NCBI GenBank assembly: GCA_020848655.1
Contig: JADLHU010000162.1
Span: forward strand, 62,001 to 126,000
Length of the DNA: 64,000 nt
Source of the DNA: Novosphingobium sp.
GTDB lineage: Bacteria; Pseudomonadota; Alphaproteobacteria; Sphingomonadales; Sphingomonadaceae
Reading direction: 5' to 3'
Shown one piece after another: positions 38,813-45,695 of this stretch. Under the pieces are notes generated by a model. That model was not told the origin of the DNA. It made no database searches and saw nothing but the letters and a program-made list of their open reading frames with translations. A program made the position numbers and the translations under genes. How positions within the stretch are numbered: the first letter of the stretch is position 1; every line of letters begins with the position of its first letter.

Positions 38813-39463
38813 CTAAATTGCGTAGGCGCGCAGGAACACCCGCGTCGCCTGTTCGGCGTCGGCGGCCACGGTGTCTTCGCATTCCGCGGCGCGCAGGCCC
38901 ATCAGCCGCTCGCTGTGGGAATTGCACATGCACAGCCCGATCAGTTCGCGCGCGGCGCGAAAGGGATCGTCGCGGCGCAGCCGGCCGCGTTCCATCGCGG
39001 TGGAAAGATATTCCGCCAGCAGGATGCGCGTCTGGAGGGGCGCGCGTTCATAGAAGATGCGGCCCACTTCGGGAAAGCGATTGGCCTCGCCGATCACCAG
39101 CCGGTACAGCGCGACCGCCTCGGGCGAACTGGTCTTGCGCAGCAGTTCGCCGCAGAAGCGATAGAGCGCGGTTTCCGTTTCGTCGTGCGGGTTGAGGATC
39201 AGCAGAAGCTGTTCCCGGAACGCGGTGGTCACCTGATCGATCACGGCGGCGAACAGCACGTCCTTGGACGGGAAATAGTTCCACAAGGTGCCCTTGGAGC
39301 CGCCCAGCGCCGTGGCAATGGCCGACATCGTGGTGCCGTCATAACCATGTTCCAGAAACCACTGCGCGGCAACGTCAAGGATCGTTTCGCGGCGCGAATG
39401 GCGTCGCGCCTCGCGGCGGCTGGCGGGCTTGGCGGCAGGACAGGGGGCGGAAACGGCATTCAT
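38813..39463 (-). CDS. TetR/AcrR-family regulator of the EmrAB-type exporter
   Basis: A 216-residue TetR repressor. The helix-turn-helix is at about residues 25-71 (RETILDVAAQWFLEHGYDGTTMSAIATALGGSKGTLWNYFPSKDVLF), with a basic N-terminal stretch. The C-terminal domain fits AcrR-like ligand sensors. It is divergent from the NodT-EmrA-EmrB genes, and two matching operator-like 19-mers lie in the 91-bp gap, so it probably represses both directions. Confidence 0.9.
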   Translation of the reverse strand: MNAVSAPCPAAKPASRREARRHSRRETILDVAAQWFLEHGYDGTTMSAIATALGGSKGTLWNYFPSKDVLFAAVIDQVTTAFREQLLLILNPHDETETALYRFCGELLRKTSSPEAVALYRLVIGEANRFPEVGRIFYERAPLQTRILLAEYLSTAMERGRLRRDDPFRAARELIGLCMCNSHSERLMGLRAAECEDTVAADAEQATRVFLRAYAI

Positions 39464-39470
39464 GATTGCC

Positions 39471-39489
39471 GTACCGTATAGTACGATTT
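39471..39489. promoter_or_regulatory. Operator-like site 1 (TetR)
   Basis: GTACCGTATAGTACGATTT, containing the inverted repeat CGTAC-n6-GTACG (39470-39485). It lies 7 bp from the tetR start and just upstream of the TTGACA hexamer at 39495. It matches site 2 at every position outside position 1 and the five-base centre. Confidence 0.65.
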
Positions 39490-39494
39490 TCTGG

Positions 39495-39524
39495 TTGACA
39501 ATGGCTTCGCGCCGGCCGACTGAT
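39495..39524 (+). promoter_or_regulatory. Promoter of the NodT-EmrA-EmrB operon
   Basis: TTGACA at 39495-39500 is a perfect -35 hexamer. The -10 element is weak (ACTGAT at 18-base spacing, or GACTGA at 17). It lies between the two operator-like 19-mers, which fits tight repression. Confidence 0.5.
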
Positions 39525-39531
39525 GAAATTC

Positions 39532-39550
39532 ATACCAGGCGGTACGATTT
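39532..39550. promoter_or_regulatory. Operator-like site 2 (TetR)
   Basis: ATACCAGGCGGTACGATTT, the second copy of the site-1 pattern RTACC-n5-GTACGATTT, placed just before the start codon of the outer-membrane factor gene, downstream of the predicted promoter. Confidence 0.6.
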
Positions 39551-39554
39551 CACG

Positions 39555-41063
39555 ATGCCCACCCGTTATTTGCAGTTTCCCTTGCTGAAGCCGGCCATGC
39601 TGGCGGCTGGTCTCGCGGCGATGCTCGCGGTGGCTTGCGCGCCGCTGCCGGCCACGGGGCCAAAGCCGATGCCGCGCCCGCCCGAATCGGTTGCCGCCGC
39701 GCAAAGCCTGCCTGGCTCTGCGGAAGGCGCGTGGCCGGACGAACGGTGGTGGCAGGCCTATGGCGATGCGCAGCTCGATGCGCTGATCGCCGAAGGGATG
39801 GCCAGCTCTCCCGATGTCGCCGCCGCCGCGGCGCGGCTGCGCCGGGCAGGCGGGCTGGCCCAGCAGGCCGGCGCGGCGCGGCTGCCCTCGGTCGATGTCA
39901 ATGGCCAGGCCAACGCTGAAAAGCAAAGCTACAACAATGGCTTCCCCAAGGAATTCCTGCCGCAGGGCTGGCAGGATACGGGGCAGCTCGCCGCCAGCCT
40001 GGGCTTCGATCTGGACCTGTGGGGCCGCAATCGCGCGGCGCTGGCCGCCGCCACGTCGGAAAAACGCGCCGCCGCGATCGATGCCCGCCAGGCGCACCTG
40101 ATGCTCGCCACCGCGATCGCCTCTGCCTATGTCGATCTGGCCCGATTGTTCGAGGAACGCGACGTTCGCCAGGGTGAACTCGACACCCGCACCGCCACGC
40201 AGCGGCTTGTCGCCCAGCGCCAGGCCAATGGCCTGGAAACGCGCGGCAGCCTGCGCCAGTCGGATTCGCAGGCGGCGGCGGCCCGCGCCGCGCTGGCCGC
40301 GGCAGACCAGGCCATCGCCGTGCGCCGCAACCAGATCGCCGCGCTGGTCGGCGCCGGGCCGGATCGCGGGCTGGCGCTGGCCCGGCCCGCGCTGATCCGC
40401 CCGGCCCTGTCGGGGCCCGCGTCCGGCGGGCTGCCCGAAGGCGTCACCACCGACCTGGTCGGGCGCCGCCCCGATATCGCCGCCGCGCGGGCGCGGGTGG
40501 AAGCCGCCGCCAGCCGGATCAAGGTGGCGCGCGCCGATTTCTTCCCCGCGATCCGCCTGAACGCGCTGGTCGGCGTGCAATCGCTGGGGCTGGAAAACCT
40601 GTTCGCCGGTGGTTCCAGCTATGGCCGCGCGGGTCCGGCGATCAGCCTGCCGATCTTCCACGGCGGCGCGCTTCAGGGGCGCTATCGGGCCGAGCGCGCC
40701 AGCTATGACGAAGCCGTGGCCGATTACGATCGCACGGTGCTGGCCGCCTATCAGCAGGCCGCCGACGCGGTAAGCGGCCGTCGCCTGCTGGCCGAACAGC
40801 TTGCCCGCTCGGCCGAGGCGCTGGCCGCCGCCGAAGATGCCTATGCCGTGGCGCAAAGCCGCTATCGCGGCGGGCTGTCGTCCTATCTCGATGTGCTGAC
40901 GGTGGAAGACCGCTTGCTGCAGGCGCGGCTGGCCCACGCCAGCGTGGCCGCCGCCGCGCGCGCCATCGATATCGATCTTGTCCGGGCGCTGGGTGGAGGC
41001 TTCGCGCCTGCCGCCGCATTCGCCCCCGCCGCCAACAGTGCCAAGGACGCCCCCAATGGCTGA
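39555..41063 (+). CDS. NodT-family outer-membrane efflux lipoprotein (EmrAB system)
   Basis: A 502-residue TolC-like factor starting at ATG 39555 (MPTRYLQFPLL); the track's earlier start lies in the operator region. It has a lipoprotein signal with lipobox LAVAC followed by APLPATGPKP. Family repeats: ERWWQAYGDAQLDALIAEGMASSPDVAAAAARL and LVGRRPDIAAARARVEAAASRI. It is the outer-membrane part of the tripartite exporter encoded next, with an 8-base overlap into emrA. A second, RND-linked NodT protein is at 12077. Confidence 0.92.
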   Translation: MPTRYLQFPLLKPAMLAAGLAAMLAVACAPLPATGPKPMPRPPESVAAAQSLPGSAEGAWPDERWWQAYGDAQLDALIAEGMASSPDVAAAAARLRRAGGLAQQAGAARLPSVDVNGQANAEKQSYNNGFPKEFLPQGWQDTGQLAASLGFDLDLWGRNRAALAAATSEKRAAAIDARQAHLMLATAIASAYVDLARLFEERDVRQGELDTRTATQRLVAQRQANGLETRGSLRQSDSQAAAARAALAAADQAIAVRRNQIAALVGAGPDRGLALARPALIRPALSGPASGGLPEGVTTDLVGRRPDIAAARARVEAAASRIKVARADFFPAIRLNALVGVQSLGLENLFAGGSSYGRAGPAISLPIFHGGALQGRYRAERASYDEAVADYDRTVLAAYQQAADAVSGRRLLAEQLARSAEALAAAEDAYAVAQSRYRGGLSSYLDVLTVEDRLLQARLAHASVAAAARAIDIDLVRALGGGFAPAAAFAPAANSAKDAPNG

Positions 41064-42237
41064 TGCCGATCCCCAGAACGCTGTCCCCACCGAAGAGATG
41101 CTGGCCGCCGATGCCGCACAGGTCGCCGCCATCGCGCGGTCGCGCCAGCTTGCCGCGCGCCGCACCTGGCTGACGCGGCTTGTCGTGGCGGTGGTCGTCG
41201 TCGGCGTGCTGTGGGGGCTGTGGTACGCCCTGATCGGGCGCAATCACGTCAGCACCGACAATGCCTATGTCAATGCCGAGGCGGCGCAAGTGACGCCGCT
41301 CGTCGCGGGCGCGGTGATCGAAGTGAACGTGCGCGATACCCAGGCCGTCAAGCAGGGCGAAGTGCTGGCCCGGATCGATCCCGCCAATGCCACGATCGCG
41401 GTGGCCCAGGCCGAAGCCGAACTGGCCGATGCGCTGCGCCGCTTTCGCCAGACCCGCGCGACGAGCGGCGCGCTTTCGGCGCAAGTCGCGGCGCGCGGCG
41501 CGGATATCGCCCAGGCGCGCGCGCAACTGGCCGCCACGCAGGCCGATCTCGAAAAGACGCGCATCGATCTGCAGCGGCGCGTTGCGCTGGCCAGCAGCGG
41601 CGCGGTTTCGGGCGAGGAACTGACCGCCGCGCGCAAGGCCTTCGCCAGCGCCCGCGCCGCCGTGGAAGCCGCGCAGGCGGGCGTCGCCCAGACCCAGTCG
41701 ACCCGGCTTGCCGCCGAAGGCGAACTGGCCGCGAACGAGGCGCTGGTGCGCGGGCTGAGCGAGGACAGCGATCCCGGCGTGCTGGCGGCCAAGTCCAGGC
41801 TGGCCACCGCCAAGCTCGATCTTACCCGCACCGTGATCCGCGCGCCGATCGCCGGCACGGTGACGCGCCGCCAGGTCCAGCTTGGCCAGCGCCTGACCGC
41901 GGGGCAGACGATGATGACGATCGTGCCGCTGACCAAGGTCTATGTCGATGCCAACTTCAAGGAACGCCAGTTGACGCGCGTCAGGATCGGCATGCCGGCC
42001 ACGGTCACCGCCGATATCTATGGTGGTTCGGTGATCTATCATGGCCGCGTTGCCGGCATTTCCGGCGGCACCGGTGCCTCGATGGCGCTGATCCCGGCGC
42101 AGAACGCGACCGGCAACTGGATCAAGGTGGTTCAGCGCCTGCCGGTGCGGATCGAGCTTGATCCCGGGGAACTGGCGCAGCACCCGCTGCGCGTCGGGCT
42201 TTCGACCGAGGTCGAGATCGACCTTTCGGGGAACTGA
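41056..42237 (+). CDS. emrA: EmrA-like membrane-fusion protein
   Basis: A 393-residue HlyD/EmrA-family adaptor from ATG 41056. One N-terminal membrane helix (LTRLVVAVVVVGVLWGLWYAL, about residues 37-57) is followed by the barrel-sandwich start (HVSTDNAYVNAEAAQVTPLVAGAVIEV), a long coiled-coil hairpin rich in Ala/Arg/Gln, and the second half (TVIRAPIAGTVTRRQVQLGQRL). It bridges the MFS pump and the NodT factor. Its start lies inside the NodT stop region (ATGGCTGA). Confidence 0.93.
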   Translation: MADADPQNAVPTEEMLAADAAQVAAIARSRQLAARRTWLTRLVVAVVVVGVLWGLWYALIGRNHVSTDNAYVNAEAAQVTPLVAGAVIEVNVRDTQAVKQGEVLARIDPANATIAVAQAEAELADALRRFRQTRATSGALSAQVAARGADIAQARAQLAATQADLEKTRIDLQRRVALASSGAVSGEELTAARKAFASARAAVEAAQAGVAQTQSTRLAAEGELAANEALVRGLSEDSDPGVLAAKSRLATAKLDLTRTVIRAPIAGTVTRRQVQLGQRLTAGQTMMTIVPLTKVYVDANFKERQLTRVRIGMPATVTADIYGGSVIYHGRVAGISGGTGASMALIPAQNATGNWIKVVQRLPVRIELDPGELAQHPLRVGLSTEVEIDLSGN

Positions 42238-42244
42238 GCAAGCC

Positions 42245-43786
42245 ATGGCGACACAGGCGATGGGAACGGCCGCCGCGCCGATGATCGCGCCATCGCGCCG
42301 CGCCCTGGCCGGGCTGGTGCTGGCGGCCGGCAATTTCATGGTGGTGCTGGACCTTAGCATCGCCAACGTATCGGTGCCGCATATCGCCGGTGACCTGGGC
42401 ATTTCCATGGATCAGGGCGCCTGGATCATCACGTCCTATGCCGTGGCCGAGGCGATCTGCGTGCCGTTGACCGGCTGGATCGCCCAGCGCTTTGGCGCGG
42501 TGCGCGCCTTCGTGCTGGCGATGCTGGGCTTCGGCCTGTTTTCGGCGATGTGCGGCCTGTCGATTTCGCTGACCATGCTGGTCGTCTGCCGCATCGGCCA
42601 GGGCCTGTGCGGCGCGCCGCTGATGCCGATATCGCAAACCCTGATGCTGCGCGTCTTCCCGCCCGAACAGCGCGGCATGGCGATGGGCATCTGGGCGATG
42701 ACCACGCTGGCAGGGCCGGCGATGGGTCCGATCATCGGCGGCACGATCAGCGACAACCTGAGCTGGCACTGGATATTCCTGATCAACATCCCGCTGGCGG
42801 TGCTGTGCGCCGCTGCGGCCTGGTGGCTGCTGCGCGGCGTGGAAACGCCCACGCGCAAGCTGCCGATCGATGGGATCGGGCTGATCCTGCTGGTGTTCTG
42901 GATCGGCGCCTTGCAGATCATGCTCGATATCGGGCGCGATCATGATTGGTTCGCCGATCCGTTGATCGTGGCGCTGGCGATCATGGCCTTCCTGGGGTTC
43001 CTGGTCTTCGTGATCTGGGAACTGACCGAGGAACACCCGATCGTGAACTTGCGCATTTTCGCAAATCGATCGTTCAGCGCGGGCGTGTTCACGCTGGCGC
43101 TTTCGTTCGGCGCCTATTTCGCGGGGATTGTGATCATCCCGCAATGGTTGCAGACCTCGCTGGGCTATACCGCCACGCTGGCCGGGCTGACCACCGCGTT
43201 CGCCGCCATGGCGGCGATCACCACCTCGCAAATCGCCGCGCGGATGCTGACGCGCGCCGATCCGCGCCTGATGGTGTCGCTGGCGGTGGGCTGGCTGGGG
43301 CTGATGACCCTGCTGCGCGTCGGCTGGACGACCAATGCCGATTTCTGGACGCTTTCGCTGCCGCAACTGCTTCAGGGCTTCGGCATGTCGTTCTTCATGA
43401 TCCCGCTGACGGTCATCTCGCTGAGCACGATCAAGCCGCAGGACATGGCATCGGCGACGGGGCTGCAAAGCTTCGTGCGCACGCTGGCGCTGGCCGTGTC
43501 GACGTCATTGGCGCTGTCCATCTGGGGCAATGCGCAGCGCACGTCGCACAACGCGCTGGCCGATACGCTGCAACCCGATGCGACCATGGCCACGCTTTCC
43601 GCGCAAGGCATGTCGACCGAGCAGGCCCGGCAGGTCATTGCCAGTATGGTCGATCAGGAAGCGACGACGCTGGCGCTGAACCACACGTTCCTGATCAGCG
43701 CCGTCGTGCTGTTCGTGGCGGCCGGGCTGATCTGGCTGTCGCCGCGCCCCCGGCCATCGGGAACGCCGATCGAAGGCGCGCACTGA
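42245..43786 (+). CDS. emrB: EmrB-like MFS exporter (DHA2, 14 helices)
   Basis: A 513-residue DHA2-family transporter with about 14 membrane helices. TM1 region: FMVVLDLSIANVSVPHIAG, then GAWIITSYAVAEAICVPLTGWIAQRFG, typical of EmrB/QacA. ATG 42245 is preferred over the earlier frame start at 42158. It should expel drugs or uncoupler-like compounds through EmrA and NodT to the outside. Last gene of the operon, convergent with the ASFNRGGD protein gene. Confidence 0.93.
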   Translation: MATQAMGTAAAPMIAPSRRALAGLVLAAGNFMVVLDLSIANVSVPHIAGDLGISMDQGAWIITSYAVAEAICVPLTGWIAQRFGAVRAFVLAMLGFGLFSAMCGLSISLTMLVVCRIGQGLCGAPLMPISQTLMLRVFPPEQRGMAMGIWAMTTLAGPAMGPIIGGTISDNLSWHWIFLINIPLAVLCAAAAWWLLRGVETPTRKLPIDGIGLILLVFWIGALQIMLDIGRDHDWFADPLIVALAIMAFLGFLVFVIWELTEEHPIVNLRIFANRSFSAGVFTLALSFGAYFAGIVIIPQWLQTSLGYTATLAGLTTAFAAMAAITTSQIAARMLTRADPRLMVSLAVGWLGLMTLLRVGWTTNADFWTLSLPQLLQGFGMSFFMIPLTVISLSTIKPQDMASATGLQSFVRTLALAVSTSLALSIWGNAQRTSHNALADTLQPDATMATLSAQGMSTEQARQVIASMVDQEATTLALNHTFLISAVVLFVAAGLIWLSPRPRPSGTPIEGAH

Positions 43787-43832: not shown

Positions 43833-44729
43833 TCAGGCGAACGTGAGCAAGGCCGTGGGATCGCCGGTGATCACCTGGTCCCCGATGCGAAACTGCCCCA
43901 GCGCCTCGTTGTAGATCAGCGTCCGGTCGCCATCGGCGAAATCCAGGGTAAGCCCGACCGGGCCGACGGGGATCGTCAGGTCGAGGTGGGAACTGGGTGT
44001 CGATGACGTCAGGTGAACCGATGATCCGGTGACCGACGCGACCAGATCGGCCGCATTTGCGGGCAGCGTCAGGGTGTCCCCGCCGCGATTGAAGGATGCG
44101 TCGAACACCGCCTTTCCGATCTGGAAGGTCACGTGCTCTGCCTCGTTCGTGCCGGAGATGATGATCTGATTCGCCGACACGATGGTCTGGCTGTCAGCCG
44201 ACAGAAATAACCTGTGAACCGCGTTAAAGTTCGGCACGTCAGGCCCGAGCCAATTTCCATCGAACGGCGGAGACTGAATCGCGGCTGGAACGGCATCGAC
44301 GATCTGATCGCCGATCAGCATGTTTCCCGTCGCGCTGTCGAACCGGAGGAAACGGATATCGTCGTCGATGATGATCACCAGACTTTGCCCCACGGGCACG
44401 ATGACGTGGGTATCCCCCTTGTCGAGCGTGGCATTCGATCCGCTGCGACCGATTTGCCAGTCCTGGGCCAGGCCGGCCAGGCGAAGTACGTCGCCGCCAC
44501 GGTTGAACGAGGCGTCCAGCATGATGGTGCCGGGAACATCGCGGACATTGATGGAATCGTCGGAAAGCGTGCCGGTGATCGTTCCGCTGCCACCGATACC
44601 AATTCCGCTGGAGGGCGCGAGGAACACGCGAAAGCCATCACCGGGCACGGGCGCTGGCGTGACTGGCCCCGCCGGTTCTTCAAGGAACAGCATATTGGGC
44701 AAGGCGTTCGTTTCACCGGTTATCGCCAT
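43833..44729 (-). CDS. Uncharacterised two-repeat protein with ASFNRGGD motif
   Basis: A 298-residue acidic protein without cysteine. It contains two related halves 138 residues apart: LDASFNRGGDVLRL (72-84) ... NMLIGDQIV, and FDASFNRGGDTLTL (209-222) ... QFRIGDQVITG. Each half is beta-rich with Gly/Ser/Asp/Asn turns, as in surface or secreted repeat domains. There is no N-terminal signal peptide, and the C-terminus is hydrophobic (PTALLTFA), which would fit type I secretion but does not prove it. I do not recognise a characterised family. Convergent with emrB, with 46 bp between the ends. Confidence 0.8.
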   Translation of the reverse strand: MAITGETNALPNMLFLEEPAGPVTPAPVPGDGFRVFLAPSSGIGIGGSGTITGTLSDDSINVRDVPGTIMLDASFNRGGDVLRLAGLAQDWQIGRSGSNATLDKGDTHVIVPVGQSLVIIIDDDIRFLRFDSATGNMLIGDQIVDAVPAAIQSPPFDGNWLGPDVPNFNAVHRLFLSADSQTIVSANQIIISGTNEAEHVTFQIGKAVFDASFNRGGDTLTLPANAADLVASVTGSSVHLTSSTPSSHLDLTIPVGPVGLTLDFADGDRTLIYNEALGQFRIGDQVITGDPTALLTFA

Positions 44730-44857: not shown

Positions 44858-44883
44858 AAGGGCGAGCCTTGCGGCCCGCCCTT
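44858..44883 (-). terminator. Rho-independent terminator after the CsgG-like gene
   Basis: On the minus strand AAGGGCGGGCC-GCAA-GGCTCGCCCTT forms an 11-bp stem (one G-U pair) closed by a GNRA tetraloop and followed by TTTTCG. It sits 27 bases past the CsgG-like stop. Confidence 0.85.
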
Positions 44884-44909: not shown

Positions 44910-45695
44910 TTATTGCGCGCGCGGTGCCGCTGCCGAGGCGTCCTCGGGCAATCCGCCAAGCTGGGTGACCAGCTTGGTATAGGCATCGAGGTAGGCCAGC
45001 ACGATGATCTGGCCGATCGCCGTGTCCTGGTAGCCGCCGCCGCCCGCCCCGGCGAACGTGCCCCAGAAGCTGCCGCCGCCGGCGCCGCCGCCGAAGCTGA
45101 CGTCGGACTTGCGGGCATAGCCTTCGACCAGCGCTTCTTCCTCGGTCGTGCGGGCGTTGACGATCGACAGCGTGACGTTGGCTTCGCCCTTCTTCACGTT
45201 GATGCTGCCCGCGATGGCGCCGAAGCCCCGGCCGAACAGGCCGCCGCCGATGCTGCCCAGCACCGCGCCGGCGCCGCCGCCGCCCGAATTGCGGTTGGCG
45301 CTGACGATGTTGGGTTCAAGGAAATAGTCCGCCGCGCGCACCTGGCCCCGGCCCAGGTTGGAGCCGCGCTGCAACTCGCCGCTGTCGGCCAGTTCGCGCT
45401 CCATCGCCCGGCTCTGCATCGAGCGGCCGCGATTGACCAGCGTGAAGCAGCCCGACTGCTGCACGAAGACGCGCAGGATCGCTTCCGGGCTGCCCAGGTT
45501 GTATTCGCGCCACCACTGGTTGTCCGGCTCGACGATGGCCAGCGCGCCGAGCCGGCGGGTGCAGCGCGGAATCTGCTGCGTTTCGCGGGTCTGCTGCTGG
45601 CGCGCCGAAGACCCCTTGGTATCCTTGGCCCAGCCGGTCGCCGTGCCCCCCAGAGCGAGCGCGACAGCGGCTGCTCCACAGACGAACTTCCTCAT
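44910..45695 (-). CDS. CsgG/HfaB-like exported protein
   Basis: A 261-residue exported protein from the ATG at 45695, marked by AAGGAG 8 bases upstream (the track merges it with an upstream frame). Signal peptide: KFVCGAAAVALALGGTATGWA. The body recalls CsgG/HfaB proteins: ILRVFVQQSGCFTLVNRGRSMQSRAMERELADSGE, ADYFLEPNIVSANR and SGGGGAGAVLGSIGGGLFGRGFGAIAGS. No lipobox cysteine is seen at the usual place, unlike E. coli CsgG. A role in the envelope (a pore, or holdfast/curli-type export) is possible but not shown; no curli or holdfast gene is nearby. Confidence 0.7.
   Translation of the reverse strand: MRKFVCGAAAVALALGGTATGWAKDTKGSSARQQQTRETQQIPRCTRRLGALAIVEPDNQWWREYNLGSPEAILRVFVQQSGCFTLVNRGRSMQSRAMERELADSGELQRGSNLGRGQVRAADYFLEPNIVSANRNSGGGGAGAVLGSIGGGLFGRGFGAIAGSINVKKGEANVTLSIVNARTTEEEALVEGYARKSDVSFGGGAGGGSFWGTFAGAGGGGYQDTAIGQIIVLAYLDAYTKLVTQLGGLPEDASAAAPRAQ

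What the first reader, a model, noticed from the sequence alone, without database searches (positions are those of the whole stretch)
43833..44729. Stand-alone protein made of two ASFNRGGD repeat units
Nearly the whole protein is two diverged copies of a beta-rich unit with the exact octapeptide ASFNRGGD. It lacks a signal peptide and cysteine and has a hydrophobic C-terminus, features compatible with type I secretion. I cannot assign it to a characterised family.
Basis: partly seen in the sequence, partly recalled or inferred. Interest (0 to 1): 0.6.

Follow-up and report, generated by a model that had tools for sequence, protein, structure and literature searches.

The report
Detached tail module of secreted Sphingomonad proteins
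The protein is a free-standing copy of an uncatalogued two-part module that a few sphingomonad bacteria attach to many proteins they appear to export through type I secretion, probably to hold those proteins at the cell surface or in the matrix.

Summary
The 298-aa protein (43833-44729, minus strand) is two about 110-residue units, 35% identical, each carrying DASFNRGGD. Pfam, NCBIfam, PHROGs and PDB sequence searches give no family. It is not a local oddity. The same tandem pair forms the tail of three large proteins elsewhere in this genome (serralysin protease, GH113 glycosidase, CAP/cadherin protein) and of about 35 exoproteins in other sphingomonads. A single unit starts a large protein encoded last in a type I secretion operon. 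A tree of 93 units places this protein's first unit with the "first" units of the pairs and its second with the "second" units. It is therefore a detached tail module, not a new duplication. AlphaFold models (pLDDT 92-95) match RTX beta-roll domains best, and profile comparison links the unit to the RTX C-cap. Family proteins are acidic, mostly Cys-free, and end in hydrophobic-[AGV] far more often than background genes (42/55 against 34/440). Most likely: a Ca2+-dependent, type I-secreted, module-only protein for surface or matrix attachment. Export is well supported; the attachment role is inferred. The unit is rare and patchy (4 of 400 other family genomes).

The parts
43833..44729 (-). Gene for the two-unit protein (298 aa, no Cys, pI 4.2)
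44637..44729 (-). N-terminal linker, residues 1-31, predicted disordered; no signal peptide seen
   Evidence: pLDDT 57-66
44295..44633 (-). Unit 1, residues 33-145; belongs to the 'first of the pair' clade
43860..44216 (-). Unit 2, residues 172-290; belongs to the 'second of the pair' clade
44490..44516 (-). DASFNRGGD, residues 72-80; proposed Ca2+ loop (inference)
44076..44102 (-). DASFNRGGD, residues 210-218; proposed Ca2+ loop (inference)
43836..43871 (-). C-terminal tail ITGDPTALLTFA, proposed type I secretion signal end
44858..44883 (-). Hairpin AAGGGCG-G-GCC-GCAA-GGC-T-CGCCCTT followed by T-rich tail; likely terminator of the upstream CsgG-like gene, so the protein has its own transcript
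   Evidence: read by eye output; not reported by the scan

Best explanation
The protein is a type I-secreted, module-only exoprotein. Its two domains are an RTX-cap-derived beta-solenoid unit (the 'SFNRGGD unit'). Steps: (1) made without signal peptide and kept loose in the low-Ca2+ cytosol [inferred]; (2) its acidic, hydrophobic-ended C-terminus is taken by a type I exporter, probably the LssB/HlyB-like one in this genome [export well supported, exporter inferred]; (3) outside, Ca2+ binding, probably at DxSFNRGGD, locks the fold [inferred]; (4) the paired units bind a cell-surface or matrix partner (surface glycan, or units on the large S-layer-like protein) and so hold cargo enzymes near the cell [inferred]; (5) this cargo-less version works as a bivalent matrix linker or filler [inferred]. 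My estimates: type I export 0.85; attachment role about 0.5; linker role of this protein about 0.35.
For: The same pair is the tail of serralysin, M64, GDSL, GH113, CAP and cadherin proteins, and lies near the N-terminus of a GH16 protein; 20 of 28 scanned carry RTX nonapeptides above cutoff. A single unit begins the last-gene product of operon OEP-ABC-HlyD-adhesin-unit protein in the own genome (L009), in several other sphingomonads and in G098. Tail ends in hydrophobic-[AGV] in 42/55 against 34/440 background; K/R in last 20 residues 1.4% against 13.2%. pI median 4.05; no Cys in 37/50. Top PDB fold matches are RTX domains. Unit-to-RTX-cap profile score 26.5 against at most 17.1 in 60 shuffles and 16.4 reversed. 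N-terminal placement in S-layer-like proteins, tail placement in enzymes and free versions together fit binding better than a pure secretion signal. In Caulobacter the RsaA N-terminal domain anchors the type I-secreted S-layer to O-antigen with Ca2+ (PMC8828063).
Against: No ligand identified. This gene is not next to any type I secretion gene; its neighbours are an EmrAB-type efflux cluster and a CsgG-like gene. Fold matches are weak (TM 0.4-0.5, E 1.5e-3 or worse). The unit-cap profile probability is only 45%. Some unit carriers (G012, G016, G448) lack the dedicated exporter. No ortholog with the same stand-alone two-unit layout was found, so selection on this form cannot be shown.
Confidence: 0.5

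Rival explanations
1. The unit pair is a secretion and folding aid: an extra C-terminal cap that folds on meeting external Ca2+ and pulls the rest of the exoprotein out; the free version is a leftover with little function.
For: Unit resembles the RTX C-cap; paired units mostly at C-termini; the CyaA cap is critical for folding of its RTX domain (PMC9120197, abstract).
Against: Units also sit at N-termini (L009, L023/L050, L068), which leave the exporter last, and in cargo-free proteins. Several carriers already have an RTX block with its own cap upstream.
Confidence: 0.25
2. Decaying remnant: the gene is the broken-off tail of a larger exoprotein and has no function of its own.
For: Its units fall in the pair1 and pair2 clades, so it descends from a tail; no ortholog in congeners; the ParA-PanC-CsgG block is conserved in 14 congeners without it nearby; a damaged carrier occurs in G016.
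Against: Frame intact, the conserved motif residues kept in both units, C-terminal signal kept, codon bias normal, no enzyme remnant upstream (180 bp gap).
Confidence: 0.17
3. The units bind each other: the unit on the S-layer-like protein docks unit-tagged enzymes, in the manner of cohesin and dockerin, and this protein is a bivalent cross-linker.
For: Single units on the S-layer-like protein and pairs on enzymes occur in the same genomes.
Against: Some unit-pair carriers have no S-layer-like carrier in the incomplete data; no complex prediction could be run.
Confidence: 0.2

Closest known systems
RTX beta-roll domain and its C-terminal cap (CyaA block V, MIS38 lipase, serralysin)
   Same: Type I-secreted context, acidic, Cys-poor; best fold matches; GGD segment aligns with the last nonapeptide and the cap
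   Different: No GGxGxDxUx repeat array (no PF00353 hit); single conserved DxSFNRGGD loop per unit; sequence not recognised by any library
RsaA-type S-layer proteins of Caulobacter
   Same: Type I-secreted, acidic, Cys-free; N-terminal domain anchors to surface glycan with Ca2+ (PMC8828063); here a unit is N-terminal in a large protein encoded by a type I operon
   Different: No sequence hit between the unit and RsaA (PDB search); no lattice shown; unit also tags enzymes
LapA/BapA-type large adhesins with LssB/LapB exporters
   Same: Exporter is nearest TIGR03375 LssB; a cadherin/tandem-95 adhesin lies in the operon
   Different: Exporter scores below the TIGR03375 cutoff (600.7 against 693.1); this protein has no adhesin repeats
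C-terminal sorting tags shared by many exoproteins (type IX secretion CTD, PEP-CTERM)
   Same: One module on many unrelated secreted proteins of a genome; rare but multi-copy (comparison from general knowledge)
   Different: No dedicated processing enzyme found; unit also N-terminal; no cleavage motif

Membership tests
RTX protein | Array of Gly/Asp nonapeptide repeats (PF00353) | tested here: not met
   No hit in P0001; present in 20 of 28 scanned relatives
RTX protein | Beta-roll/C-cap type fold | tested here: inconclusive
   Top PDB matches are RTX domains but TM 0.4-0.5; hhalign 26.5 against at most 17.1 in shuffles
Type I secretion substrate | No N-terminal signal peptide; uncleaved C-terminal signal with hydrophobic end | tested here: met
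   Sequence and tail statistics; consistent with, not proof of, export
Type I secretion substrate | Encoded beside ABC-HlyD-TolC genes | tested here: not met
   Neighbours of 43833-44729 are MFS efflux and CsgG-like genes; met for the single-unit relative L009
Type I secretion substrate | Found outside the cell and dependent on the exporter | not testable with these tools
   Needs proteomics
S-layer protein (RsaA type) | Forms a paracrystalline lattice | not testable with these tools
   None
SFNRGGD-unit family (defined here) | Unit profile match with DxSFNxGGD, GS and IPxG motifs | tested here: met
   Both units about 100-120 bits

The most novel reading that the evidence does not exclude
The unit is a general surface-retention tag in some sphingomonads: one Ca2+-dependent module, recognised by one surface partner, that sorts a whole set of type I-secreted enzymes and adhesins onto the cell, with cargo-free versions acting as matrix linkers or competitors.
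Probability: 0.3. Interest if true: 0.7.

Novelty: new variant of a known kind. Interest (0 to 1): 0.45.

Why it matters
An uncatalogued domain shared by many exoproteins of one genome defines a testable exoproteome. A pattern search for DxSFNxGGD or a profile of the unit predicts which proteases, lipases, glycosidases and adhesins are exported by type I secretion in these bacteria. If the attachment role holds, it would be a surface-retention tag for type I substrates in bacteria that, from general knowledge, carry glycosphingolipids in place of LPS.

Tried and rejected
Beta-lactamase PDB match (E 0.0017, one 58-residue stretch): rejected, because it is a single weak local match unsupported by the fold search. 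DUF6252 (E 0.17 whole protein, 0.012 for unit 2): below cutoff, only 32 residues, and 1 of 85 units matches. Phage origin: no hit in the phage or viral collections and no viral fold match. Local tandem duplication: rejected by the unit tree. Strict linkage between unit and exporter: rejected, because exporter orthologs occur in many genomes without units and some unit carriers lack it. Fold matches to large clostridial toxins read as shared solenoid geometry only: 6-15% identity and TM of at most about 0.55.

Full report
OBSERVATION. The ORF at 43833-44729 (minus strand, 298 aa) is as described. It holds two units, residues 33-145 and 172-290, with 35% identity and E 7e-12 to each other. The shared exact string is the nonapeptide DASFNRGGD (residues 72-80 and 210-218); 1 of 20,000 shuffles gave any repeated 8-mer. 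No Cys, pI 4.2. Pfam, NCBIfam and PHROGs give no family. The best PDB sequence hit is a weak stretch of a beta-lactamase, judged chance.

THE UNIT IS SHARED. The own genome has four more carriers: L006, a serralysin-type M10 protease with RTX repeats; L007, GH113 with Ig-like domains; L008, CAP with cadherin domains; and L009, a 1270-aa protein with one N-terminal unit (domain). The genome-contig search gave 48 loci: all but one (L062, a MAG labelled Gammaproteobacteria) are labelled as sphingomonads or come from an unclassified Pseudomonadota MAG. An iterated profile found 102 unit copies in the loci examined, some loci being fetched twice; 93 distinct ones went into the tree. Layouts are of three kinds: (a) a pair at or near the C-terminus of large exoproteins (M10, M64, GDSL, GH113, CAP, cadherin, FG-GAP), with a GH16 carrier having the pair near its N-terminus (L023); (b) one unit at the N-terminus of a large acidic protein, called S-layer-like here only for its size, acidity and operon, not because a lattice is known; (c) small proteins of 146-308 aa with one unit and little else (L064, L067, L069, L071, L073). 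RTX nonapeptides pass the cutoff in 20 of the 28 proteins scanned.

LINK TO TYPE I SECRETION. The N-terminal-unit protein follows the genes OEP, ABC, HlyD and a cadherin adhesin in the own genome (L009: 3538-14633) and, with genes of the same sizes and sequence starts, in L061, L068, L070 and L074; close variants of the operon lie beside it in L066 and L075, and a unit protein follows the same genes in G098. In G315 a unit protein and a small unit protein lie beside the same exporter genes. The ABC protein scores best to TIGR03375 (LssB) but below its cutoff; HlyD passes TIGR01843. Family C-termini end in hydrophobic-[AGV] in 42/55 against 34/440 background genes (p 1e-28), and basic residues in the last 20 are 1.4% against 13.2%. 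These fit an uncleaved C-terminal type I signal (RTX review PMC3034196). The same review describes RTX S-layer proteins as acidic and Cys-free. Family pI median is 4.05, with no Cys in 37 of 50. P0001 ends ITGDPTALLTFA, as typical as any.

DISTRIBUTION. Among 400 other genomes of the family, 4 carry units; among 384 other genomes drawn from the class, none does. Only about 11 candidates per genome were scored in these two runs, so the counts are lower bounds. In the fully scored relatives set, 3 of 60 other genomes carry units (G012, G016, G021). Carriers often have many copies (13 matches in G021). Exporter orthologs (E at most 1e-130) are in 24 of the 400; 3 of the 4 unit carriers have one (Fisher p 7e-4, not corrected for kinship). 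The converse fails: most exporter carriers lack units, and G025 keeps the exporter while the adhesin and unit genes are absent. The unit is thus a passenger, not part of the exporter.

ORIGIN. In a tree of 93 units, first-of-pair and second-of-pair units separate (2 and 5 changes against about 29 in shuffles). P0001 unit 1 lies with the first, unit 2 with the second units, the latter nearest those of L035, L028 and L032. The pair is therefore old, and P0001 is a tail without its cargo. Forks inside these clades are weakly resolved (116 columns). The ParA-PanC-CsgG block next to it is conserved in 14 congeners, with no P0001 match within the roughly 1.5 kb examined past CsgG, so the gene looks like an accessory insertion at this place.

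FOLD. AlphaFold2: full protein pLDDT 92, pTM 0.84; unit 2 alone pLDDT 95, pTM 0.87; almost all beta. Foldseek of the single unit against the PDB: the first 12 matches are all RTX proteins or RTX domains (MIS38 lipase, Aeromonas RTX-like domain, CyaA block V, Serratia LipA), E 1.5e-3 to 5e-2, TM 0.34-0.50. Profile comparison with the RTX C-caps of the relatives: score 26.5, aligning RGGDTLTLPANAADL with the last nonapeptide and cap GQDTAIFVGNRADY; reversed caps 16.4, best of 60 column shuffles 17.1. Reading: an RTX-cap-derived domain, likely but not proven. In the nonapeptide D1, S3, N5, G7 and D9 are nearly constant, while positions 2 and 6 vary (the regex used favours S3, N5 and G7; alignment-wide conservation agrees). 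This spacing is that of D-x-[DNS]-x-[DN]-x-G-x-D Ca2+ loops (general knowledge; inference).

MECHANISM. Shown: shared module, tail origin, type I-like C-terminus, operon link of a relative. Inferred: export of this protein, Ca2+ locking, and surface or matrix attachment. The Caulobacter precedent is RsaA, whose N-terminal domain anchors to O-antigen with Ca2+ after type I secretion (PMC8828063). The cap-folding rival rests on CyaA, where the C-terminal cap is critical for RTX folding (PMC9120197, abstract); N-terminal and cargo-free units speak against it as the only role.

NOVELTY. No library held here describes the unit, and a literature search for the octapeptide gave nothing (open-access papers only). 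I file it as a new variant of a known kind: an RTX-related accessory domain of type I exoproteins.

Noticed in passing
window 39429-43786 (+): Three-gene efflux set (outer-membrane factor, HlyD/EmrA-like adaptor, 14-TM MFS pump) convergent with the finding; not a type I exporter.
   Followed up: partly
window 44910-45695 (-): CsgG-like gene with a signal sequence; the ParA-PanC-CsgG order is conserved in 14 congeners.
   Followed up: partly
L064 3587-4042, L069 712-1206, L073 7935-8375: Tiny single-unit proteins (146-164 aa) next to PHA synthase/phasin or rpoN/lptB genes; a recurrent neighbourhood in different species that suggests orthology and selection.
   Followed up: partly
L027 3661-7197 (G016 C11): Unit protein interrupted by a stop and shifted frame: a decaying member.
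   Followed up: no
L116 (G025 C84): Exporter operon kept but adhesin and unit genes missing downstream.
   Followed up: yes
L062: MAG contig labelled Gammaproteobacteria carries two unit proteins; misbinning or transfer.
   Followed up: no
L120 4612-14327 (G315): Unit on a 2977-aa protein next to a 212-aa single-unit protein beside the exporter; a pair of large and small unit proteins in one locus.
   Followed up: no
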